Part shown: positions 52,962-64,000 of the stretch, piece after piece | How positions within the stretch are numbered: the stretch's first letter is position 1 | Layout: each line of letters begins with the position of its first letter | Assembly: GCF_008704655.1 (NCBI RefSeq) | Contig: NZ_CP023688.1 | Span: 124,001-188,000 of the forward strand | Reading direction: 5' to 3' | DNA: 64,000 bases | DNA from: Streptomyces rimosus | Lineage (GTDB): Bacteria > Actinomycetota > Actinomycetes > Streptomycetales > Streptomycetaceae | Translations under genes and position numbers: made by a program | The notes under the pieces: generated by a model | What the model was told of the DNA's origin: nothing | What the model saw: only the letters and a program-made list of their open reading frames with translations | The model's database searches: none

Positions 52962-54218
52962 CTACAGGCGGCCGGAAGCAGCGGTGAGTTGGGTGAGGTC
53001 CACGGAGTCCGCGCCCTGGTTCGGTGCGGGAAGGAAAAGACAGGCGGCGGCAACGGCCGCCAGTGCGGCGGCGAAGCAGACCATTCCCGTACGGCCCCGG
53101 GCCCAGCGGGCCTTGAACCGTATCGGGTCCTCCACCAGGACCTTGGAAAGGAATCCGACTGCGAGGGAGACGGGAACCAGGACCGCCGTACGGCCCCATC
53201 CGCCGAATCCCAGGAATTTCTCGGAGAGCAGCAGATAGATCGGCCAGTGCCAGAGATAGAGGCTGTAGGAGATGCCGCCCAGCCATCGCAGGGGCCGGCT
53301 GCCCAGGAGACGGCCGACCAGGCCGCCCGGGGCGTGCGCGAGAAGGGCGATGAGGAGGGCGGCGGCCAGGGCATGGAGGAAGAGGCCGCCCCGGAAGAGG
53401 AAGGGCGAACTGGGGCCGTCGGTAAGGAACCAGTACGTCCCGAGGCCGCACACCAGGACGGCACAGAGGCCCCCGGCCACCCGACCGGGCACCCTGGCCA
53501 GCAGGCCGCGGGCCGGGGCGGTGGCCATCAGGGCGCCCAGCAGCAGCGAGAAGGCGCGGGTGTCGGTGCCCTCGTACACGCGCGTGGTGTCCGGGCCGTG
53601 AGCGAGCGCGATCATGACCGCAAGGGAGATGACGGCACCTGCGGCGGCGATCACCGGCACCAGACGGCGCGTGGCCCGACCCCGGACGAGGACGGCGACC
53701 ACCACCGGCCAGACCACGTAGAACTGCCACTCGACGCCGATGCTCCACAGATGGCTGAAGACGCGGGTGTCGGCGTCGTTCCAGTAACCGACCTGCTCGC
53801 TGATGAAGTGCCAGTTCGTCGCCTGGAGCGCGGCCCACGGGCCGTCCTCCAGGGCGAAGCCGAGCAGGTACGGCGGCCCCACGGCGACGAGGAGCAGCGT
53901 CCCGACGATCATCACCGTCAGTGCGGGCAGCAGGCGGCGTGCCCGGCGTTCCCAGAAGGCGGCGAGGTCGATGCTGCCCCGGCGGTCACCGGCCTCCTTG
54001 AGCAGCAGGCCGGTGATCAGGAAGCCGGACAGGACGAAGAACAGGTCCACGCCGAGGAAGCCGCCGCCGAAGTGTCCGGCGTGGAAGAACAGGACGCCGA
54101 GGACGGCCAGGCCGCGCAGGCCGTCCAGGGGTGCGATGTGCCGGGCCGTCGGGCGCGGTCGGCGGCGTTGGCCGGAGCGGTGGGAGGGCGGCGTGGTCGT
54201 GGGTGTGGTCGTCGGCAT
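52962..54218 (-). CDS. Acyltransferase 3 family membrane protein (OafA/YrhL type)
   Basis: A 418-aa integral membrane protein with about ten helices. The family marks are HIAPLDGLRGLAVLGVLFFH (Arg and His of the active site), GVDLFFVLSGFLITGLLL, and SYSLYLWHWPIYLLL. It transfers acyl groups, usually acetyl, to sugars or lipids at the membrane. The N-terminal 35 residues are disordered and Thr/Arg-rich. The ATG at 54218 follows GAGGAC. The SGNH hydrolase encoded just upstream on the same strand would provide the usual partner domain, here as a separate lipoprotein. Confidence 0.9.
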   Translation of the reverse strand: MPTTTPTTTPPSHRSGQRRRPRPTARHIAPLDGLRGLAVLGVLFFHAGHFGGGFLGVDLFFVLSGFLITGLLLKEAGDRRGSIDLAAFWERRARRLLPALTVMIVGTLLLVAVGPPYLLGFALEDGPWAALQATNWHFISEQVGYWNDADTRVFSHLWSIGVEWQFYVVWPVVVAVLVRGRATRRLVPVIAAAGAVISLAVMIALAHGPDTTRVYEGTDTRAFSLLLGALMATAPARGLLARVPGRVAGGLCAVLVCGLGTYWFLTDGPSSPFLFRGGLFLHALAAALLIALLAHAPGGLVGRLLGSRPLRWLGGISYSLYLWHWPIYLLLSEKFLGFGGWGRTAVLVPVSLAVGFLSKVLVEDPIRFKARWARGRTGMVCFAAALAAVAAACLFLPAPNQGADSVDLTQLTAASGRL

Positions 54219-54390
54219 ATACGGGTCCTCGGAGCAGCGGGGAGCGTGGGAGACGGCGGCCGAGGGCGCCGCTCCGGCTGTTGGAGCAGCGCCCTCGACG
54301 CGTTGGCGGGCGTGTGGTCCGCTCACCGCCGTCGCTCCCGGTGCACCTCCGTACGTACGGACGCGGCACCCGGGCGACGGCGTACGGGCA

Positions 54391-55281
54391 TCAGCCGCAC
54401 TTGAGCTGGCCGTAGACCTTGGAACCGGTCCAGGGGCCCTTGGCCCACTTCTCCGGGGCCGCCGGGGTGAAGGAGTAGTGCCTGCTCAGCTGGCCCCCGA
54501 ACCAGTTGGCGAACGCCGCGGCGCCCTGCTGGCAGGTGTGGATGCCGTCCTGGCTGCGCTGGGCCTTGGCCGCGGCGCTGTCGGTGCCCCACAGGGCCGC
54601 GGCGTCGAAGAAGCGGGCCTGGCCCGCGTTCTTGGCGGCGGCGTCCTGGGCCGCCTTCGGCGCGGACTTGATGGCGGCCTCGTGGCTCTTGTAGAAGTCG
54701 TCGATCTTGAAAGGCGGCGCGGAGACGATGACGAGTTCGGCGCCGGCGTCCTTCGCGACCTTGGCGAGGTGTTCGTACGAGCTGGTCTGCTGGGCGGCGG
54801 TGCCCCAGTCGTACGTGGTGACCTGGTAGGCGATGACATCCGGATGGAAGGTTTTGGCCGTGTTGGCCAGTTCCTTGTAGGTGTCCTCGGCGAACTTGGC
54901 GGTCGGGCCTTCGCCCTTGACGACCGTACCGCCGCCCGCGGAAGCGATGGACTTGAATTCCGCGCCGCCCGCCTTGACGGCCGCTTCGAGGGCGGGTGCT
55001 TCGGCCTCGGCGATCGAGTCGCCCATCCAGAGCAGCTTCGAGAGCTGCTTTCCGCCGTTCTTCCCGGCGGGCGGGGCGGAAGCGGCGGAGTCGGCGTTGT
55101 CGCCGTTGCCAGACGCCGAGTTGCCGCAGCCGGTGAGGGCGACGAGGGACACGCCCGCGATCAGGAGGGCACCGGCGGCCAGTGCGGGGCGCCCGCGCCG
55201 TCCGGGGCGGCGCGGGGAAGCGGCGGGGGTGGGGAACTGCTGCGATGACGACGGGCTGTCCGCGATGTGCTTGCTGTGCAT
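54391..55281 (-). CDS. SGNH/GDSL-type hydrolase lipoprotein
   Basis: A 296-aa lipoprotein (lipobox LTGC, Cys52). The SGNH blocks are LLWMGDSIAEAEAPALE (Ser), a Gly-containing ASAGGGTVVKGEG, and DGIHTCQQGA with the Asp-x-x-His pair. Low-complexity residues follow the lipobox as a spacer. It should act as an esterase or acyltransferase on cell-surface glycans. Many OafA-type proteins carry a fused SGNH domain; here the two are separate neighbouring genes on the same strand, and the membrane gene follows 170 bp downstream. Confidence 0.87.
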   Translation of the reverse strand: MHSKHIADSPSSSQQFPTPAASPRRPGRRGRPALAAGALLIAGVSLVALTGCGNSASGNGDNADSAASAPPAGKNGGKQLSKLLWMGDSIAEAEAPALEAAVKAGGAEFKSIASAGGGTVVKGEGPTAKFAEDTYKELANTAKTFHPDVIAYQVTTYDWGTAAQQTSSYEHLAKVAKDAGAELVIVSAPPFKIDDFYKSHEAAIKSAPKAAQDAAAKNAGQARFFDAAALWGTDSAAAKAQRSQDGIHTCQQGAAAFANWFGGQLSRHYSFTPAAPEKWAKGPWTGSKVYGQLKCG

Positions 55282-55436
55282 GTTTTCGAGGTAAGCACGG
55301 CGCACGGCCCGTACGGGGGCCTGTCATTCTCCGGTCACATACCGCGGAAATTTCCGTCATACGACGGTCACGGGGCGGCGGAATTCCGGCTCGGAAGGCC
55401 CGTCAGAAGCGCGCTCGGCGCGCTGTACGGGACGTG

Positions 55437-55781
55437 TCACCCCTGCGCGCCGGAGAACTTCTCCGCGAGATCACGGTGCCAGTCCGCCGCTGACTTTCCC
55501 TGAGCGGGGCTGATGACCGATCCGAGCATCCGGCTCAGGCGCTCGGCCTCCTCCGCGAGGCGCAGGTGCACGCGCCGCGCGTGCTCGCGGCAGGCCAGGC
55601 ACGTGACACGGTCCGGGCGCGGCGAGGTCATCGCATATGGCACCCGCAGCCCGCATCCGGTGGTGACCCGGCTCGGCAGGTCGCCGGCCAGGCCGAACGT
55701 GGCGGCCAGCATCGTGCGGGCAGCGGCGTCGCCGTGCACCACCTCCGACTCGACATGAATGTGCGGATCGTTCCCTGCCAC
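55437..55781 (-). CDS. Small hypothetical protein with a Cys/His cluster
   Basis: A 114-aa soluble protein of unknown family. Cys in TTGCGLRVPY and the CLACREHA segment (CxxC with following His) could bind zinc. The GTG start follows a strong GGGGGGAG. It is short, acidic and helical at the C-terminus. It is in the same orientation as the NTF2-like gene but its context gives no clue to function. Confidence 0.65.
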   Translation of the reverse strand: MAGNDPHIHVESEVVHGDAAARTMLAATFGLAGDLPSRVTTGCGLRVPYAMTSPRPDRVTCLACREHARRVHLRLAEEAERLSRMLGSVISPAQGKSAADWHRDLAEKFSGAQG

Positions 55782-55809
55782 GATGCTCCCCCCTGTGCGA
55801 CGACTCGGC

Positions 55810-56214
55810 TCAGATCGCCCCCAGCGCCGTCATCATGCCGAGCCCGTCCGAGACGACCCAGTATTCGGCGAATCGGCCGTCGACGACGCGGAAGATGTCC
55901 TGCCCGGCGAAGGAGACGCGGGTGCCGGGCTCGGCGGTGGCGCCGGGGATGCCGCCGCGGTACGAGCCGTGGAAGGTCCAGTGCGCGGCCACCAGGCCGT
56001 CGCCGATGACCGGGCCGACGTCGAGGGTGTTGCGGATGTCGGTGAAGTACGCGTGCGACTGGCGGATCTGGTCGGCCGCGCCCTTCGGTCCGTGCACGTC
56101 CATGGTGGGCCAGTGGCCCACGAAGTCGGGGGTGAGGATCTCCTCGGCCACGGCGAAATCGCCGTGCCAGAGGTCGAAGAGCCAGCGGCGGTAGAGCGTT
56201 TCGACGACGTTCAT
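55810..56214 (-). CDS. NTF2-like / SnoaL-type protein
   Basis: A 134-aa protein with the SnoaL-like cone fold pattern: VETLYRRWLFDLWHGDFAV, AEEILTPDFVGHWP and GQDIFRVVDGRFAEYWVV. Such proteins act as small cyclases, isomerases or ligand binders. The ATG at 56214 is chosen because the conserved helix begins there. The TetR gene upstream ends 32 bp away on the same strand, so the two are probably one regulated unit. Confidence 0.85.
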   Translation of the reverse strand: MNVVETLYRRWLFDLWHGDFAVAEEILTPDFVGHWPTMDVHGPKGAADQIRQSHAYFTDIRNTLDVGPVIGDGLVAAHWTFHGSYRGGIPGATAEPGTRVSFAGQDIFRVVDGRFAEYWVVSDGLGMMTALGAI

Positions 56215-56245
56215 ACCGCCATTTTGTGTACGCGTACGCAACGGG

Positions 56246-56965
56246 TCAACCACCGGCGGCCGGGCGCGCCGCGCAACGCTGCGGCAGCGTCGCCGTCAGC
56301 GCCGTCACCAGCGTGGCGAGATCGTCGGCGAGGTGGCCGCGGCGGTCCGGGGACAGCCAGTACGGGCGCAGCGCGGCCACCGTGGGATACCGCTCGGCGT
56401 CGGCCTCGGCGGGCAGGCCGGCCTGGTACGGAGAGCGGCCCTCGGGGTGCGCGGCGTGCTGGGCGAGGTCGCCGAGGAGGAAGTTCCAGACGATCCGGTT
56501 GGCCGTGGCCGCCTCCTCCAGCGACAGGCCGCAAGCCCGCCAGGCGGCGTAGATCTCCTCCAGCAGCCACAGGACCGAGGGAGCCATCAGGTCACCGCGG
56601 GCCAGTACGTCCACGATCCAGGGCCGGGCCGCCAGCTCGTCGCGCTGCCAGGTCAGCAGCGCCAGGAGGCGGGCCCGGGGCTCGTCGGGCAGGGCGGGCC
56701 GGGGCAGATCGGTCACGATGCGGTCCAGAAGCAGCACCAGGAGTTCGTCCTTGTCCCGTACGTGCCGGTAGATGCTCATCGGGGAGCTGCCCAGCGCCTC
56801 GGCGACCCGGCGCATGGTCAGCGCCGCGCTGCCTTCCCCGGTGACGATGCCGAGGGCCGCTTCGATGATCCGGTCACGGGAGAGGCGGGCCGGCCGTCCC
56901 CGGCGTCCCGGCCCCCGCCCGGCGGTCGCGCTCCGTTCCGTACCCGCTGTGCTGTGGTCGCTCAC
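56246..56965 (-). CDS. TetR family regulator
   Basis: A 239-aa regulator. The helix-turn-helix lies at about residues 48-68 (LTMRRVAEALGSSPMSIYRHV), with a TetR_C-type sensor domain after it. The first 28 residues are Arg/Gly-rich. It is followed after about 30 bp by an NTF2-like gene, the likely target. The inducer is unknown. I see no clear palindrome in the short upstream region. Confidence 0.92.
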   Translation of the reverse strand: MSDHSTAGTERSATAGRGPGRRGRPARLSRDRIIEAALGIVTGEGSAALTMRRVAEALGSSPMSIYRHVRDKDELLVLLLDRIVTDLPRPALPDEPRARLLALLTWQRDELAARPWIVDVLARGDLMAPSVLWLLEEIYAAWRACGLSLEEAATANRIVWNFLLGDLAQHAAHPEGRSPYQAGLPAEADAERYPTVAALRPYWLSPDRRGHLADDLATLVTALTATLPQRCAARPAAGG

Positions 56966-57102
56966 GGGAGCAGTGTGGCATTGGGGGGTGAGGGGGCCGG
57001 TTCGCGAGGGGACGGCCTACGGGCGGAGGCGGACGGCGTACGCAGGGGGACCGCTCGTCGGTCTCCGGGTCCGCAGGCACGTTTCCTCCGCCCGGGCCAC
57101 GA

Positions 57103-58116
57103 TCACGCCCCCACGGATTCTCCGGCCTGGTGCTCCGCCGCCCGCTGGGCCAGTTCGGACCAGTTGTCCGAGCAGGCGCGGGCCAGTTCGGCTACGGTGC
57201 GCCGGCAGTCCGCCGGAATGTCCGCGGTGATCCTCTCCCACTCCTGGGGGCTGACCGTGTGGATGCCGAGCAGCCGCAGCAGGGTGCGGCCGGTATTGCT
57301 GTACCGCAGCGCCGGATCGTCCTTGAGCCGCCGCACGGTCCTGCTCCGGTCCACCGCGGGCATCCGTACGGGCGTCACCGCGCCGGCGGTCCCCCGGCGC
57401 CGGCCGACGGGCCGTCCGGGTCCCCGCTGTCCGCCACGTTGGCCGCGCGGGCCAGTGCGCGGTCCCGTCAGCAGGGGTTCCTCGCCGCGGCGGATCCGGT
57501 TGCGTACGTCGCGCGCGGTTTCCGGTGAGATGCCCGTCGCCCGGGCGATCTGGCGGAGCGAGAGGTCGGGGTTCTCGGCGATGAGATCACCGGCAAGCTT
57601 GCGGCCCTCGGCGCCGTCGAGCGGCCGGAACCGGCCGTCCTGGCCGACGCGTCCGCGCTCCGGCGTCGCGCTGCCCGGCATCTTCCGGCGGACCTTGGCC
57701 ACCGTGGCCGGGGCCAGGCCGACGATCGCGGCGATCATCCGGTTGGACCAGGTGGCATGCGAGGTGATGATGCGTTCGGCCGCGCGCTTGCGGTCCGCCT
57801 TGGTCAGCGGCAGCCCGTGGGCGCTGTTGGACTCGACGGCGAGGACGAAGGCGTCCGCCTCGTCACCGTCGAAGAACCGAACCGGAATGGTCTCCTGGCC
57901 GCGCCGCAGGGCCGCGCGCAGCCGGTGCATGCCGTCGATGACCCGCATCGTGTCCCGGTGGACGAGGATGGGCGGCAGCGGTCCGTCGGCCACGGCCAGC
58001 AATTCGATGTGCTCCGCACTCTCCCCAGCGATCCTCGGCGAATCACTCACCGACAGGGCACTGATCTCGACCTCGACGACCGTGTTCAGGTCGACCTGCG
58101 ACTGCCCGGGTTCCAA
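57103..58116 (-). CDS. StrR-like ParB-domain transcriptional activator
   Basis: A 337-aa protein with a ParB/Srx-like N-terminal domain (LPPILVHRDTMRVIDGMHRL, DADAFVLAVESN-like region) and two helix-turn-helix segments (NRMIAAIVGLAPATVAKVRR and LSLRQIARATGISPETARDV), matching the StrR/NovG/Tei15 activator group of antibiotic clusters. Such proteins activate cluster genes by binding GTTCGACT-type inverted repeats. An Arg/Gly-rich linker divides it from a C-terminal SPQEWERITADIPADCRRT region. No biosynthetic cluster is present within this window, so it is either an orphan or its targets lie outside. About 630 bp of intergenic DNA lies upstream. Confidence 0.87.
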   Translation of the reverse strand: MEPGQSQVDLNTVVEVEISALSVSDSPRIAGESAEHIELLAVADGPLPPILVHRDTMRVIDGMHRLRAALRRGQETIPVRFFDGDEADAFVLAVESNSAHGLPLTKADRKRAAERIITSHATWSNRMIAAIVGLAPATVAKVRRKMPGSATPERGRVGQDGRFRPLDGAEGRKLAGDLIAENPDLSLRQIARATGISPETARDVRNRIRRGEEPLLTGPRTGPRGQRGGQRGPGRPVGRRRGTAGAVTPVRMPAVDRSRTVRRLKDDPALRYSNTGRTLLRLLGIHTVSPQEWERITADIPADCRRTVAELARACSDNWSELAQRAAEHQAGESVGA

Positions 58117-58750
58117 TGCTTCCCTCCTAGGCTCGCGTTCGCCGTTGGCTGCCCTTGTTCCGGAATGCCGGACGGCTTACGGCCTGCCCCCTCGTTTCGG
58201 ATAGGGCCGACGGCGGCGGACGGTGTTTCGCCTTGCGTCTGCGGATTGCGGAGCAGCGGAGAAAAGGAATCGCGCGGTACGGCGCGTCCGCGTCGGGCCC
58301 GGTCCCCCCGCTTCGGCACTGCTCGGCGCGGCGGGCCGGAAACCGGCGGCCCGTCCCCAAGCCGATGGCCCGCCGCCGCGCCGCCACGGCCGGTCGTCGC
58401 CGGTCGGCCGTGGGTGCCCGGCGACTCCGTTCGGCGCGGGTGCGGTTTGCCTACCGTGCGCACCTGGCTCGAAGTCGCCGTCTGGTGATGATGCTGAGGC
58501 GGTCGGCCGGGCCCGGGAAGAGGGCCATTGTCCAGGACTTGTCCAGCACTTGTCCGGCCTGCTCAGCCCGGGTACAGGCGGCAGATCCGGACAATCTCGC
58601 GAGGTTTGTTCGGAAGGAATTCCCTGAGACAAGTGTGAGAGCGCGCGAGGGAAGACGGCTGCTGCGGGGACCGGTTACGGAAGCGGGCCCGGGCAACCGG
58701 CCGTTGCGCGGGCCGGCAGGTCCGCCCCGCGCATTACCCGGCCCTCTGCC
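58117..58750. other. Long intergenic region upstream of the StrR-like gene
   Basis: About 630 bp without a supported gene. It holds the 11-bp tandem repeats annotated separately and presumably the promoter of the StrR-like gene. Confidence 0.5.
58528..58594. promoter_or_regulatory. 11-bp tandem repeats with an inverted copy
   Basis: TTGTCCAGGAC, TTGTCCAGCAC and TTGTCCGGCCT follow one another with an exact 11-bp period (58528, 58539, 58550). An inverted CCGGACAA lies at 58587-58594. Direct repeats in phase with one helical turn are the form of SARP-type activator sites. No -10 hexamer is obvious at the usual distance. Confidence 0.45.
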
Positions 58751-60415
58751 CTACTGGCCGCGTGCGCCGAACACCTGCGTCCAGGTCGGTCCGCCGGACC
58801 CTTCGTGGGTGCCTATGCCGATTTCCTTGAAAGCGCAGTTGAGAATGTTCGCCCGGTGGCCGGGGCTGTTCATCCAGCTGTTCATCACCTCGGCGGCGGA
58901 CCGCTGTCCCCGGGCGATGTTTTCCCCGTAAGTACTCCACTGGTATCCGGCGGCCTTGATCCGGTCGCCCGGGTCCGTTCCGTCCGGACTGGTGTGGTCG
59001 AAGTAATTGCGCGCGTCCATGTCCTGCGAATGGCGCCCTGCCGCGGTGTCGAGCTGACTGTTGCCGCGTACTGGCGCGCAGCCCTGCTTGGCGCGTTCGG
59101 TGTTGACCAGAGCGGTGACCTGCTGCGCGAACGGCGACTGGCCGCTCGAGGAACCGGCGGCCGGGGCGGGTGCGGCGGACGACGGGCGCGGAGCCGGGGT
59201 GGCCGATTCCGTGGGGGTCCGTTTCTTCCTGGGCGTGTGCGGCTCCTTGGAATGGGAGGCCGAAGCGGACGGAGTGGGCGTCGGACTGTGGCTCTTCCCG
59301 GAGGGCGAAGGGCTCGCGGAGGGGCTGCGCGGCGGCTGCCCGGCCAGCGGCGCCGACTCGGGCTCCGTGGCGGCGCGGGTGGCACCGGGTTCCTCGTCCG
59401 GTCCGGAAGTGATCAGCGGGAGGACGCCGCCCACGGTGGCGAGAGCGGCGGCGGCCACGGCGGCCGCGGTGACGGCGCGTCGGCGGCGGACGCGGCGGCT
59501 CTCGCGCAGCGCGTCACGGAGTTGGGCCCGTCCCCCGGCGGCGGTGGGGCCGCCCACCGAGGGAGCCGCCGACCCGTCTGGCGCCGGGGTCATGGCGGGC
59601 TGCTGGGTGGTGGCGCCCGCGAGGACCGGGGACTCCAGGGTGTCCGGCGCGAGCGTGGCGGCCAGCGGCACCAGCGCCAGACCGACGAGCAGCTTGTCCG
59701 CGGGCACCAGTCCTGAGGAGAAGGAGGAGCAGACCGTGCACTCGCGGGCGTGCCGCGCGATGCGCTTACGCCACAGCGCGGAGGGCACGCCGTCCCACTG
59801 CTCGACGACGGTCTCCAGCAGCACGCACCGCGGGTTCGCGGACAGCGCGCGCACCACCACGCGGGAGGCTTCGAGCTGGGTCTTCATGCGCTGGACCCGT
59901 ACGGCCGTGTGCTGGGGCGAAAGCTCCATGGCCGTGGCGACCTCGGCACGGGTCAGTTCACCGGCCGCCTCCAGCCACCACAGCGACAGCAGGGCCCGGT
60001 CGGCCTCGTCCAGCCAGCGGGTGGCTTCGGCGACCTCCCGGCGCTGCCCGGACAGGCCGAGACGGACGATGGTCAGCCCGACGAAGTCGGCGCGGGGGTC
60101 GGCGACGTCGTAAGCGGTGTCCAGGCCGCCGTCCACGGGTGCGGCCTGGTCCTGACGCCAGTGCGCGCGTATCTGGTTCATCGTGATGGCCACCAGCCAG
60201 GACCGGAAACTGCCCGGATCGCGCAGTTCCCCGAGGCCGGCGAGGGCCCGGAGCATCGTCTCCTGCGCCACGTCGTCCACGTCCGCGTGGCCGTGCAGCG
60301 CGCGCCCCACGATGTTGTACACCAGGGGCATGGACTCGGTGACGAGCCGGTCCCTGGCCTGACCGTCCCCGGCCTGGGCGGCGGCGATCACCGCAGGGTC
60401 GAGTTCGCTGCTCAC
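58751..60415 (-). CDS. Membrane-tethered ECF sigma factor fused to extracellular CAP domain
   Basis: A 554-aa fusion. Residues about 20-90 are sigma region 2 (VDDVAQETMLRALAGL, WLVAITMNQIRAHWR) and about 125-185 sigma region 4 (ELTRAEVATAMELSPQHTAV). A zinc-binding HxxxCxxC (His222, Cys226, Cys229), as in anti-sigma ZAS domains, follows. A transmembrane helix (about 314-335) leads to a Pro/Ser/Thr-rich linker and a C-terminal CAP (SCP/PR1) domain (about 430-553; YFDHTSPDGTDPG, YGENIARG). It looks like a sigma factor, its regulator and an external sensor in one chain, perhaps released by proteolysis. The GTG start has only a weak ribosome binding site. Confidence 0.88.
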   Translation of the reverse strand: MSSELDPAVIAAAQAGDGQARDRLVTESMPLVYNIVGRALHGHADVDDVAQETMLRALAGLGELRDPGSFRSWLVAITMNQIRAHWRQDQAAPVDGGLDTAYDVADPRADFVGLTIVRLGLSGQRREVAEATRWLDEADRALLSLWWLEAAGELTRAEVATAMELSPQHTAVRVQRMKTQLEASRVVVRALSANPRCVLLETVVEQWDGVPSALWRKRIARHARECTVCSSFSSGLVPADKLLVGLALVPLAATLAPDTLESPVLAGATTQQPAMTPAPDGSAAPSVGGPTAAGGRAQLRDALRESRRVRRRRAVTAAAVAAAALATVGGVLPLITSGPDEEPGATRAATEPESAPLAGQPPRSPSASPSPSGKSHSPTPTPSASASHSKEPHTPRKKRTPTESATPAPRPSSAAPAPAAGSSSGQSPFAQQVTALVNTERAKQGCAPVRGNSQLDTAAGRHSQDMDARNYFDHTSPDGTDPGDRIKAAGYQWSTYGENIARGQRSAAEVMNSWMNSPGHRANILNCAFKEIGIGTHEGSGGPTWTQVFGARGQ

Positions 60416-60780
60416 GCTGTGTCCACTCTCTTTCGACTAGGGCCTCTTGCGTCCCACACCCAGGAGATGCTGCGGCGACCGGGCGGATAACAGAAATCGA
60501 GCAACCGTCCGCGGAAATCGTACGGAGCAGCGATGCGGCGGGGGTGGCGGGTCCTGCCGTACGGGCTGTCCGAGGCGGCGGACGTTGCCCGTACCGGGCC
60601 TGTGACCAGGGGCGCGGCGGCGAAGCCGGAGGCGCGTCCCGCCTCTTCACCGGTGGCGCATCAGTACAACACCGGCCAATTTTTCCCGTGTGGCACGCAT
60701 CCTTCGGCCTGTTTCCCGCGTCTCATGAGCGAGCCACTTCCTCATGTGGCCGTACTACAGGTACAATTGGAGAATTTGCA
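60416..60780. other. Divergent intergenic region
   Basis: About 365 bp between the sigma-CAP fusion and the carboxypeptidase gene, which must carry both promoters. I see no gene or strong repeat. Confidence 0.5.
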
Positions 60781-61743
60781 TTGAAAACTGGCATTAAGGG
60801 CGTACGTCGTCTGTCCGCGACGGCCGTCACCGCCGCGGGTGCGGTGCTGATGGCCGGGACGTTCGCCGCTCCGGCACAGGCCGCGACACCCGGGGCCGCC
60901 ACCTTGCGGGCCGCGGCGACCAAGGCCGCCGAGCAGGCCCGGGCGACGGCCGGCACGCCCCAGGCGCCCACGATCACCGCGGCGGGCGGGTTCGTGATGA
61001 ACAACGCCACCGGCGCGGCCGCGTTCACCAAGGCGGCGGACTCCCGCCGTTCCATGGGGTCCACCACCAAGATCATGACCGCGCAGGTGGTGCTGTCGCA
61101 GCGCAACCTCAACCTGGACACCCAGGTCACGGTCGACAAGGCGTACAGCGACTACATCGTCTCCAAGACCGCCTCGTCGGCCGGTCTGATCGTCGGGGAC
61201 AAGGTCACCGTCCGCCAGCTGCTGTACGGGCTGATGCTCCCGTCCGGCTGCGACGCGGCGTACGCGCTCGCCGACAAGTTCGGCAGCGGGTCCACGCGGG
61301 CGGCGCGGGTGCAGTCGTTCATCGGCCAGATGAACACCACGGCCAAGAACCTCGGCCTGAACAACACCCACTTCGACTCGTTCGACGGCATCGGCAACGG
61401 CGCGAACTACTCGACGCCGCGCGACCTGACGAAGCTGGCCTCCAACGCGATGAAGAACGCCACGTTCCGCACCGTCGTGGGGACCAAGTCGACCAAGCAG
61501 AAGGTCACCACGAAGAGCGGCGGCTACCGCTACATGTCGTGGACCAACACCAACAACCTGCTGGGCAGCTACGCCGGCACCATCGGCGTGAAGACCGGTT
61601 CGGGTCCGGAGGCCAAGTACTGCCTGGTCTTCGCCGCCACCCGGAACGGCAAGACGGTCATCGGTACGGTCCTGGCCTCCTCCTCGGTGGCCAACCGCAC
61701 CGCCGACGCGAAGAAGTTGCTGGACTACGGCTTCGCGAAGTAG
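60781..61743 (+). CDS. D-alanyl-D-alanine carboxypeptidase
   Basis: A 320-aa exported penicillin-binding protein of the PBP5/DacA class. The signal peptide ends near APAQAA. The active-site triad is complete: Ser94-x-x-Lys97 (SMGSTTK), SxN-equivalent Ser155-Gly-Cys157 (PSGCDAA) and Lys271-Thr-Gly (VKTGSG). It trims the terminal D-Ala of peptidoglycan stems. The start is a TTG with TTGGAG 8 nt ahead; the frame upstream is non-coding. No C-terminal membrane anchor is visible. It is divergent from the sigma-CAP gene and may be among the cell-wall genes that sigma factor serves, an inference. Confidence 0.93.
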   Translation: MKTGIKGVRRLSATAVTAAGAVLMAGTFAAPAQAATPGAATLRAAATKAAEQARATAGTPQAPTITAAGGFVMNNATGAAAFTKAADSRRSMGSTTKIMTAQVVLSQRNLNLDTQVTVDKAYSDYIVSKTASSAGLIVGDKVTVRQLLYGLMLPSGCDAAYALADKFGSGSTRAARVQSFIGQMNTTAKNLGLNNTHFDSFDGIGNGANYSTPRDLTKLASNAMKNATFRTVVGTKSTKQKVTTKSGGYRYMSWTNTNNLLGSYAGTIGVKTGSGPEAKYCLVFAATRNGKTVIGTVLASSSVANRTADAKKLLDYGFAK

Positions 61744-61754
61744 CGAACGGCAGA

Positions 61755-61791
61755 GGGGCCTGCCCGTGGCATCCGGCCACGGGCAGGCCCC
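61755..61791 (+). terminator. Strong intrinsic terminator after the carboxypeptidase gene
   Basis: GGGGCCTGCCCGTGG pairs perfectly with CCACGGGCAGGCCCC (15 bp) across a 7-nt loop, followed by the T-rich TGTTGTTG. It lies 11 bp after the stop. Confidence 0.85.
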
Positions 61792-61945
61792 TGTTGTTGC
61801 CGGGGCGGTGGCGCGCGGGCTCTTCTCCTGCCGTCGGCCGGGAGGTTACGGCTGTTGAGTGCCGAATCGGGGTGCAGAAGTCTTCAGGTCGAAACGGTGG
61901 AATACCGCATTCCCCGGGCCCTCGTGGGTCTCTAGCGTCATAGCC

Positions 61946-62845
61946 ATGACCCAATCCCTGCGGACCCTGACACCGCCGCCCCTGTCACCCCGCCGCCGCG
62001 GGCCGCTGGTGTTCCTCGGTGTGGCCTACCTGGGCATGTGGGTGGCCATGACGCCTCTCCTGGCCACCGGCTTCCAGCGGGAGAGCGCCCGGTCGGGCAT
62101 GGGAACACTGGAGCAGGTCTGCGTCTCGGCCGCGATGTTCGCGCCCGCCCTCGCCGCTCTCCTCGTGGTCAAGTACGTGGAGCCCGCCGGCCGGATACGG
62201 GACGTCCTCGCCCTGCGGCCGTCACGGTCGTGGGCCCACGTCGCGCGCTCCTGCCTGCCGGCCCTCGTGGTCCCCGCCCTCCTGACCGTCGCCGCGCTCG
62301 TCATCGGGGCCACGACGGGGCACTACCCCTTCCACGTCCCCTGGAGCGGGCTCGGCGCCTGGGCGATCGGCCTGCTGCTCAAGATGGTGGTGTCGCTGCC
62401 GCTGTTCCTCGGCGAGGAACTGGGCTGGCAGGGCTATCTCTTCCCGCGTCTCGCCGGGCGCGGCAAAGGCTCGCGCCTGGTGTGGGCGTACGTGGGCACC
62501 GGCGCCGCCTTCGCGCTGTGGCACCTGCCCACGCTCCTGATGGGCGGGCAGTACCCCGGCCGCCACTGGTATGTGTCCGTGTTCGCGATAGTCGTCAGCT
62601 GCGTCCTCATCCTGCCGGTCTTCACCTGGCTGCGCCTGCGCTCCGGGTCGGTGGTGCCGGCGGTCGTCGGCCACGCCTTCGTCAGCACGGCGAGCGTGAG
62701 CATGGTCAAGGAGTTCGCCGCGCCGAACGCCCCGGTGGACCCGCTGCACATGGGGATGACCGGCTGGCCCGGCTGGATAGCCACCGGCGCGTTCGTCGCC
62801 TTCCTCGCGCTGACGGGGCGGCTGCGGCCGTCGGCGTACGGGTAG
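61946..62845 (+). CDS. CPBP family intramembrane glutamic protease
   Basis: A 299-aa membrane protein with about eight helices. The CPBP/Abi motifs are intact: GEELGWQGYLF (motif 1 with the Glu pair), FALWHLPTLL (motif 2 His) and VVGHAFVST (motif 3 His). These proteins cleave or process prenylated or small membrane substrates, and in bacteria are often linked to bacteriocin immunity or maturation. The ATG at 61946 begins MTQSLRTL. No neighbouring substrate gene is apparent. Confidence 0.92.
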   Translation: MTQSLRTLTPPPLSPRRRGPLVFLGVAYLGMWVAMTPLLATGFQRESARSGMGTLEQVCVSAAMFAPALAALLVVKYVEPAGRIRDVLALRPSRSWAHVARSCLPALVVPALLTVAALVIGATTGHYPFHVPWSGLGAWAIGLLLKMVVSLPLFLGEELGWQGYLFPRLAGRGKGSRLVWAYVGTGAAFALWHLPTLLMGGQYPGRHWYVSVFAIVVSCVLILPVFTWLRLRSGSVVPAVVGHAFVSTASVSMVKEFAAPNAPVDPLHMGMTGWPGWIATGAFVAFLALTGRLRPSAYG

Positions 62846-63000
62846 GGGCGATCGGGCCGCGGTGCCATCCGGGCAGCTGCGCGTTCGCGATCAGCGCCCA
62901 TGTGCGCGAGTCGGGCGGGCCGGTCGGTCACCAGGAGGTGTGCGTGGGTTGCGGCCGGTGCGGTACGGGGAGCAGCGGGATGCCGGAACGGCGGGCACCG

Positions 63001-63585
63001 TCACTGATCGGCGACGGATGAGCCGGACACCGCTCGGCAGCCGGAAACGGCGGGAGGGGTGGCCGCCGCGGAAGTCGCCGCCGTATGCGTGGCGGAAACT
63101 GCCGTGGCGGCGGATTTCGCGCGCTGCTCCTCGTAATGCGTCCAGTCCGCGGGCGGCCAAGTCGCCGTACGGGCCGCGAGCGCCTTGTCGATGTTTTCCC
63201 GCAGCCCCTCTCCGAAGAAGTCGGAAACCTGGCGCACCAGTTTCAGCGCCTCGATGGTGCCGGAAGTGAGGGGCCTGGCCATGCGGTCGGTGCCGCCCGG
63301 CACACTGCGCGGCGAGATATGCGCGCTTTTCGTCGCCCGCAGCGCGTGCGCGTGCAGACCGGCGCAGGCGTATCCGATCGCCAGGGCGATCCGCCGCACC
63401 GCGTCGTCCGCACCGCGCGTCAGCTCCCCGGCGCCGAGAAGTGTCTGATGGGGGCTGCCGGGGCCTTCGTCCCCGTCCGCCGTCCGGGGCGGGAGCTTTT
63501 TCTCCTCGGCTACGAGCAGCCGGTGCGCCCGTTCCATGACGGCCGCCACAAAGGCCAGTTCTTCCAGGTCGATGGACTGGGTCAT
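63001..63585 (-). CDS. Hypothetical helical protein
   Basis: A 194-aa soluble protein with no family I can name. The first 150 residues are mostly helical (LEELAFVAAVMERAHRLL, RIALAIGYACAGLHAHAL); the last 40 are an Ala/Thr/Ser-rich tail. No signal peptide or membrane helix. Good codon bias and an ATG start support a real gene. It is followed by nothing on its own strand for about 150 bp and lies about 130 bp from hemC, also on the minus strand. Confidence 0.72.
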   Translation of the reverse strand: MTQSIDLEELAFVAAVMERAHRLLVAEEKKLPPRTADGDEGPGSPHQTLLGAGELTRGADDAVRRIALAIGYACAGLHAHALRATKSAHISPRSVPGGTDRMARPLTSGTIEALKLVRQVSDFFGEGLRENIDKALAARTATWPPADWTHYEEQRAKSAATAVSATHTAATSAAATPPAVSGCRAVSGSSVADQ

Positions 63586-63716
63586 TGCGATCCTCCCCTG
63601 CCGTGTGCGTTACAACGGCACCGTAGGATCGGCCGGTCCCATACATGACCCGATCCGGCAAAAGCAGACCCATTGGAGTTACGGGCCGGGCTGCCGCCGG
63701 TATGTCAATCCTTACG

Positions 63717-64000
63717 TCAGTGCGCGATGGAGTCGATCAGGTCGCGCGCCCCCTGGCGCAGCAGGGCGACCGCGACGGACGTGCCCAGGGTCGCCGGGTC
63801 GAGCGGCCCGGCCCACTCGTGGGCGTTGAGCACGGTCTTGCCGTCCGGGGTGAAGACACAGGCCCGCAGCGACAGTTCCCCGTTGCGCTCGGTCTTCGCG
63901 TAGCCGGCGATCGGCGAATTGCAGTGCCCCTGGAGGACGTGGAGGAACATCCGCTCGGCCGTCGCCTCCCGGAAGGCATCCCGGTCACCGAGCGCGCTGA
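63717..64000 (-). CDS. hemC: Hydroxymethylbilane synthase, C-terminal part (5' end outside window)
   Basis: The last about 94 residues of a porphobilinogen deaminase, continuing beyond the window. The cofactor-binding Cys lies in [12 protein letters not shown], equivalent to the GGCxxPIG motif, but with His in place of the second Gly. The ending [19 protein letters not shown] is typical. It polymerises four porphobilinogens in tetrapyrrole synthesis. The altered Cys loop suggests a second, divergent HemC paralogue, as other Streptomyces HemC carry GGC; this is not provable from the fragment. Confidence 0.82.

What the first reader, a model, noticed from the sequence alone, without database searches (positions are those of the whole stretch)
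58751..60415. Sigma factor, zinc site, membrane helix and CAP domain in one polypeptide
Sigma regions 2 and 4 at the N-terminus, an HxxxCxxC zinc motif, one transmembrane helix and an extracellular SCP/PR1 domain are fused. This would put a transcription factor and an outside sensor on one chain, possibly activated by proteolysis. Its neighbour is a peptidoglycan carboxypeptidase.
Basis: partly seen in the sequence, partly recalled or inferred. Interest (0 to 1): 0.72.

Follow-up and report, generated by a model that had tools for sequence, protein, structure and literature searches.

The report
Membrane-tethered sigma factor with CAP domain
A Streptomyces protein joins a gene-switching sigma factor, a zinc-type inhibitor segment, a membrane anchor and a wall-side CAP domain in one chain; the design is a known kind, CAP as its sensor is a variant shared by many Streptomyces, and a strikingly conserved promoter in front of the gene makes its regulation testable.

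Summary
ORF 58751-60415 (- strand, 554 aa) is one open frame with an ECF sigma factor (about residues 4-190), a zinc motif C197-x24-H222-x3-C226-x2-C229, one N-in transmembrane helix (about 314-335), a Pro/Ser-rich linker and a CAP/SCP domain (435-549). It is neither chance nor a frameshift: 70 of 80 related loci carry the CAP fusion, seven more are cut by contig ends, and the zinc ligands are kept in 189 of 189 aligned proteins. Two CAP cysteines are kept or lost together, as expected of a disulfide outside the cytoplasm.

The architecture is a known kind: membrane-anchored, self-inhibited ECF sigma factors (ECF48/52/53), for which activation by proteolysis has been proposed. The same genome holds a sister with AbfB in place of CAP and a more distant protein with NPCBM. 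The carboxypeptidase neighbour is found in only 3 of 80 loci.

New here: a two-block promoter, TTTYTGTTATC-(17/18)-TCTCC, precedes the gene (core in 76 of 80 upstream regions). In four loci of one clade it recurs before an adjacent secreted papain-family protease or CAP protein. Best reading: an autoregulated, membrane-released ECF sigma factor with a CAP sensor. Release, recognition and ligand are inferred. Verdict: new variant of a known kind.

The parts
58751..60415 (-). ECF sigma factor - zinc module - TM helix - linker - CAP fusion protein, 554 aa, GTG start
   Evidence: 70 of 80 related loci carry the same fusion
60463..60496 (-). Conserved ECF-type promoter: -35 block TTTCTGTTATC (60496-60486), -10 block TCTCC (60467-60463), 47 nt before the start codon
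   Evidence: GTTAT core in 76 of 80 upstream regions; in 64 of 64 non-redundant ones with that core TC[T/C]C follows at 18 (46) or 19 (18) nt
60146..60346 (-). Sigma region 2 (residues 24-90)
   Evidence: Pfam PF04542 E 6.3e-14
59846..60049 (-). Sigma region 4 (about residues 123-190)
   Evidence: TIGR02937 spans 20-182; helices 137-150, 156-163, 167-192 in the model; no Pfam region-4 hit
59729..59827 (-). Zinc-type anti-sigma-like module C197-x24-H222-x3-C226-x2-C229
   Evidence: four ligands 189 of 189
59411..59476 (-). Transmembrane helix (about residues 314-335), N-terminus inside
   Evidence: hydropathy and charge asymmetry; the model has a helix at 296-325, at middling to low confidence
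59144..59398 (-). Pro/Ser/Thr-rich disordered linker (about residues 340-424)
   Evidence: sequence; pLDDT under 50 over most of 317-424
58769..59113 (-). CAP/SCP/PR1 domain (residues 435-549); H474, E498, H520 and C446/C527 conserved

Best explanation
It is a membrane-anchored ECF sigma factor that carries its own anti-sigma module and its own sensor. Regions 2 and 4 plus a zinc module sit in the cytoplasm, one helix crosses the membrane, and a flexible linker holds a CAP domain on the wall side. At rest the zinc module and the anchor keep the sigma domains from RNA polymerase (inferred). A wall-related signal seen by the CAP domain, probably binding of peptidoglycan, a lipid or a protease, leads to cutting near or in the membrane or to a conformational change (inferred). 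The freed sigma domains then transcribe from TTTYTGTTATC-(17/18)-TCTCC promoters, first of all that of its own gene (promoter conservation shown; recognition by this sigma inferred). In four loci of one clade the same promoter stands before an adjacent secreted papain-family protease or secreted CAP protein, so the response there probably includes secreted wall-side proteins.
For: Domains and intact frame. Zinc ligands 189/189 and exact x24 spacing 80/80. N-in charge pattern 189/189. C446 and C527 both present in 179 and both absent in 9 of 189, with one exception. CAP fold at pLDDT about 97 matching solved bacterial SCP domains. The zinc region (191-240) has pLDDT 90-96 in the full-length model but a mean of 65 when folded alone, as if it packs on the sigma domains (suggestive only, since alignment and length differ). 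Promoter: GTTAT core in 76 of 80 upstream regions, -10 block at fixed spacing in 64 of 64 non-redundant ones, spacer not conserved; best-site score at least 11 in 80 of 80 regions against 20 of 800 first-order simulated ones. Second promoter copies just after the sigma stop in L023, L025, L054 (strict) and L024 (relaxed), before secreted C1 peptidase or CAP genes. A truncated SCO4117, of the same architecture, goes with raised expression of its own gene (PMC5826349, passages).
Against: No cleavage site, protease or ligand was shown. Region 4 misses the Pfam models. The zinc module matches zf-HC2 only marginally (3 of 40 members at E <= 1, best 0.013) and found no PDB fold when modelled alone. 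The promoter could be read by another sigma factor. Genome-wide the strict motif gives 3 matches in the own genome, one of them the own promoter, and 10 in four other genomes, of which 3 are own promoters and 1 the C1 promoter (placed by my reckoning from coordinates); in one of those genomes the control pattern matched more often (3) than the motif (2). So no wider regulon is shown. In 6 of 10 loci with a C1 neighbour the C1 gene lacks the motif.
Confidence: 0.62

Rival explanations
1. The chain is not cut: the CAP domain only anchors or positions it in the wall, and activation is a conformational or redox switch of the zinc module in the cytoplasm, as in zinc anti-sigma factors of the RsrA type.
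For: The complete C-H-C-C zinc set is invariant. The linker is long and modelled as disordered, which would pass on little mechanical signal.
Against: It would not explain why the CAP pocket residues H474, E498 and H520 are kept (186, 186 and 185 of 189).
Confidence: 0.2
2. The gene is driven by a different sigma factor that recognises the conserved promoter, and the fusion protein controls other, unrelated promoters.
For: No recognition test was possible; in five genomes the strict motif has only 1 to 5 exact matches each, and no shared target beyond the sigma locus was seen.
Against: The motif goes with this gene through the loci examined and reappears next to it before adjacent genes in four loci; positive autoregulation is described as common for ECF sigma factors (PMC5826349, passages).
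Confidence: 0.2
3. The CAP domain is an enzyme or scaffold for the wall and the sigma part is a relic or a minor function.
For: CAP hits the DalA model (2.8e-23, 82.6 bits, below its cut-off of 200), and DalA binds peptidoglycan (PMC10470522, passages).
Against: The sigma and zinc part is better conserved than CAP: of the invariant columns of 73 sequences only one (R521) lies in CAP. Two relatives, L077 and L079, keep the sigma and zinc parts although no CAP is found.
Confidence: 0.06

Closest known systems
ECF52 sigma factors, SCO4117 of S. coelicolor (PMC5826349)
   Same: One chain: ECF sigma, zinc finger, TM, proline-rich linker, extracytoplasmic domain; Actinobacteria; truncated form goes with activated expression of its own gene
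   Different: Sensor is smart00776 (NPCBM, as I recall), not CAP; an NPCBM protein of that type in the same genome (L122) scores only 14.8 bits with this family's sigma profile against 267 for the AbfB sister; published motif CSGYN-17bp-SRHA differs from the promoter here
ECF53 (and ECF48) fused sigma factors (PMC8999054, PMC10766802, passages)
   Same: Fused zinc and TM anti-sigma part; some ECF52 and ECF53 members are said to bear predicted glycosyl hydrolase or carbohydrate-binding domains, which the AbfB sister L082 would fit
AbfB-bearing sister L082 in the same genome
   Same: 43% identity over residues 9-386 of the query; same sigma-zinc-TM chassis
   Different: AbfB (PF05270) replaces CAP; the conserved promoter is not evident in its upstream sequence (read by eye)
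Bacterial SCP/CAP proteins (4ifa, BB0689 4d53) and DalA (PMC10470522)
   Same: CAP fold (4ifa, 4d53); DalA is a wall-side lipoprotein that binds peptidoglycan
   Different: No sigma factor attached; our CAP is below the DalA cut-off, and the term CAP domain does not occur in the DalA paper's text

Membership tests
ECF sigma factor (sigma-70 group 4) | Regions 2 and 4 only, general ECF model above cut-off | tested here: met
   TIGR02937 62 bits against 42.9; region 2 E 6.3e-14; structural match to sigmaE over 3-187
Zinc anti-sigma (ZAS) module | C/H-x(~24-25)-H-x3-C-x2-C ligand pattern (pattern recalled) | tested here: met
   C197-x24-H222-x3-C226-x2-C229; 80 of 80 loci
Zinc anti-sigma (ZAS) module | zf-HC2 profile or ZAS fold match | tested here: inconclusive
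   zf-HC2 in 3 of 40 members at E <= 1, best 0.013; module alone pLDDT 65 and no PDB hit
ECF52 | Sigma domain belonging to the ECF52 group | tested here: inconclusive
   The NPCBM-type protein L122, taken as ECF52-like, is the last of the 20 own-genome rows scored by this family's sigma profile (14.8 bits, which saw only the loci in hand); ECF group profiles not available
ECF52 | Carbohydrate-binding extracytoplasmic module | tested here: not met
   CAP PF00188 instead; no carbohydrate-binding family among the four Pfam rows at E <= 1
ECF53 | Match to ECF53 reference WP_030276194.1 or group profile | not testable with these tools
CAP/SCP superfamily | CAP profile and fold, conserved His/Glu pocket | tested here: met
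DalA | NCBIfam NF052539 equivalog cut-off of 200 bits | tested here: not met
   82.6 bits
Proteolytically released ECF sigma factor | Cleavage by an extracytoplasmic and an intramembrane protease | not testable with these tools
   No cleavage data

The most novel reading that the evidence does not exclude
The CAP domain is the protease-sensing end of a closed loop: a secreted papain-family (C1) protease, made from the same promoter type as the sigma gene in one clade, cuts or binds the CAP domain and so sets off release of the sigma factor, while secreted CAP proteins act as decoys. This would be a bacterial counterpart of the plant pairing of PR1 proteins with papain-like proteases (that pairing is recalled, not looked up).
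Probability: 0.1. Interest if true: 0.78.

Novelty: new variant of a known kind. Interest (0 to 1): 0.47.

Why it matters
Sigma factors that carry their own inhibitor and outside sensor act as one-chain signalling systems, and few have been studied (the SCO4117 paper calls it the first ECF52 member characterised, PMC5826349). This family adds a CAP sensor, a domain whose bacterial ligands are poorly known (my recollection). Its conserved promoter gives an immediate reporter, so ligands, proteases and the autoregulation claim can all be tested in ordinary Streptomyces strains.

Tried and rejected
Rejected: chance fusion or sequencing frameshift (70 of 80 loci show the fusion; one of the 70, L031, has CAP only in part because its contig ends). 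Rejected: functional tie to the D-Ala-D-Ala carboxypeptidase (3 of 80 loci). Rejected: an obvious genome-wide regulon by motif; the two other strict matches in the own genome do not sit clearly before a gene (read by eye), and the second TGTTAT-N18/19-TCTC match touches the start codon of an amidase-like gene (named by eye), too close for a promoter. The own genome has no papain-family (PF00112) match. A metalloprotease-like gene (reprolysin-like, below the Pfam cut-off, with fn3 and ricin-lectin domains) lies next downstream in 6 of 80 loci and farther off in L038, with a weak 134-residue match in L048, all without the motif. No Rfam match at gathering score and no tRNA in the window, and no tandem repeat in 54000-64000. 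Folding the zinc module alone gave a weak model without PDB match.

Papers on a sigma-CAP fusion: the searches returned none; others (6 papers; 25 shown of 64) gave no title or abstract start that describes one; I saw listings only. The ECF classification papers (Huang 2015, Casas-Pastor 2021) are not held, so it may be in print.

Rows dropped and limits: 10 of 80 loci were left out of the 189-protein alignment (contig ends, or no CAP found), as were two identical sequences. The 120 proteins are the best of 4390 and the 80 loci the best of 281, so counts lean towards close relatives. Of 56 own-genome sigma-region-2 matches I read ten further long frames for fused domains, besides the query and L082; at least two other long frames (565 and 443 residues) were not read. 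L007 was left out of the promoter counts for lack of upstream sequence. The tree is a FastTree with support 68 for the C1 branch and long-branch warnings.

Full report

Zinc module, membrane, sidedness. The spacing is exactly 24 in 80 of 80 loci, and all four ligands are invariant in 189 of 189 aligned proteins. The profile match to zf-HC2 is marginal (3 of 40 members at E <= 1), and the module folded alone had no PDB match, so the fold is not established. One hydrophobic helix follows an arginine-rich stretch; net charge is higher before it than after it in 189 of 189, giving N-in, C-out. Two CAP cysteines, C446 and C527, are present together in 179 and absent together in 9 of 189, with one exception; 188 of 189 have exactly two cysteines in the part after residue 340. 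That is the pattern of a disulfide and fits an exported domain.

Distribution. The protein search found 4390 proteins at E <= 0.001 among 8000 candidates; the 120 listed all bear region 2 and CAP. The genome scan found 281 related loci and returned 80, from Streptomyces, Kitasatospora and Streptantibioticus. Of the 80, 70 have the CAP domain in the frame (L031 in part, at a contig end); seven are cut by contig ends before it; L060, L077 and L079 show none. L077 and L079 keep the sigma and zinc parts, and another frame of L077 holds words resembling CAP, so the end has probably decayed (read by eye).

Other fusions in the genome. The best paralogue, L082, has 43% identity over residues 9-386 but ends in an AbfB domain. 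Of ten further long sigma frames read (of 56 region-2 matches), L122 (zinc finger, TM, NPCBM) and L125 (zinc finger, TM, Pro-rich tail) share the plan, and L120 (HxxxCxxC, weaker helix, Ser-rich tail) may. NPCBM is, to my recollection, smart00776, the module that the SCO4117 paper names, so L122 is probably the ECF52 representative (PMC5826349, passages). With a profile of this family's sigma part, L082 scores 267 bits and L122 only 14.8. The CAP and AbfB families therefore look like one group with swapped outside domains, separate from the ECF52-like protein. AbfB would suit the statement that some ECF52 and ECF53 proteins bear predicted glycosyl hydrolase or carbohydrate-binding domains (PMC10766802, one passage), so ECF53 is a plausible home, not tested.

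The promoter. Comparing 80 upstream regions (79 of the 80 loci and the window; L007 has too little) showed a two-block motif. In 49 non-redundant regions a pair GTTAT/CTCC at one spacing occurs in 31, against at most 6 for any pair in five simulated sets; the best-site score is 11 or more in 80 of 80 regions against 20 of 800 simulated ones. Anchored on GTTAT alone, 76 of 80 have it in the last 200 bases; L060, L071, L077 and L079 do not. Among 64 non-redundant regions with it, TC[T/C]C follows at exactly 18 (46) or 19 (18) bases, with conserved TTTYT before GTTAT and an unconserved spacer. This looks like an ECF -35/-10 pair. In the window it is at 60496-60463, 47 bases before the start codon. 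The strict form occurs 3 times in the own genome, once as this promoter, and 10 times in four other genomes: by their coordinates 3 are the sigma gene's own promoter, 1 stands before a C1 peptidase gene and 6 are elsewhere. The control pattern gave 3 matches in one of those genomes, more than the motif's 2 there, and none in the other three. A broad regulon is thus not visible.

Neighbours. The carboxypeptidase (60781-61743, own start TTG, 320 aa) is adjacent in only L001, L002 and L008. Over 978,513 bases of the 80 loci the strict motif has 72 own-promoter matches and four others: one in L059, 165 bases before its sigma start and probably its own promoter, and three just after the sigma stop in L023, L025 and L054; L024 has a relaxed one (the relaxed form has four further matches, in L020, L030, L053 and L077, that I did not tie to a gene). 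The next gene is a secreted papain-family peptidase (L023, L024, L025) or a secreted CAP protein followed by such a peptidase (L054) (the secretion signals are read by eye). Peptidase neighbours occur in 10 of 80 loci, which need one change on a FastTree of the sigma part (branch support 68); in the other six the gene points away from the sigma gene and lacks the motif.

Mechanism. Shown: architecture, conservation, topology signals, conserved promoter, and its reuse before adjacent genes in four loci. Inferred: inhibition by the zinc module, release by proteolysis or conformational change, recognition of the promoter by this sigma factor, and a wall-side ligand. The parallel is SCO4117: a strain with its truncated sigma part shows activated expression of the gene, and release of the sigma domain from the membrane by a protease is proposed (PMC5826349, first part of the text and passages). 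A review expects the same for ECF48, ECF52 and ECF53 (PMC8999054, passages). DalA, a lipoprotein whose model our CAP domain hits below cut-off, binds peptidoglycan (PMC10470522, passages), which makes a wall ligand reasonable.

Judgement. The finding is real but belongs to a known kind; CAP as sensor is a variant that I did not find described in the searches named in Tried and rejected. The promoter is the most useful result, since it turns an annotation into an experiment.

Noticed in passing
61859-62845 (+): CPBP/Rce1-like intramembrane protease gene (PF02517 9.8e-14) two genes away from the sigma gene, found there in 3 of 80 loci, those of the S. rimosus clade.
   Followed up: partly
57103-58116 (-): Regulator that looks ParB-like in its N-terminal part (by eye) with an HTH (only HTH families hit in Pfam); beside the sigma gene in 3 of 80 loci.
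   Followed up: no
L082:1048-2613, L122, L125, L120 (own genome): Further sigma-zinc-TM fusions with AbfB, NPCBM or low-complexity tails in the same genome; L120 is the least certain.
   Followed up: partly
L022, L033, L051, L076, L077, L079 downstream of the sigma gene: Metalloprotease-like gene (reprolysin-like below cut-off, with fn3 and ricin lectin domains) next downstream in six loci, without the conserved promoter.
   Followed up: partly
L077:5980-7563 and L079: Relatives that keep sigma and zinc parts but have no recognisable CAP domain.
   Followed up: partly
L143 (own genome 5724013-5724041): Only other TGTTAT-N18/19-TCTC match in the own genome, touching the start codon of a secreted amidase-like gene (by eye); spacing argues for chance.
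   Followed up: partly
54391-55305 (-): Putative lipoprotein (by eye) with SGNH-type domain (PF19040 1.3e-06), found near the sigma gene in 3 of 80 loci.
   Followed up: no
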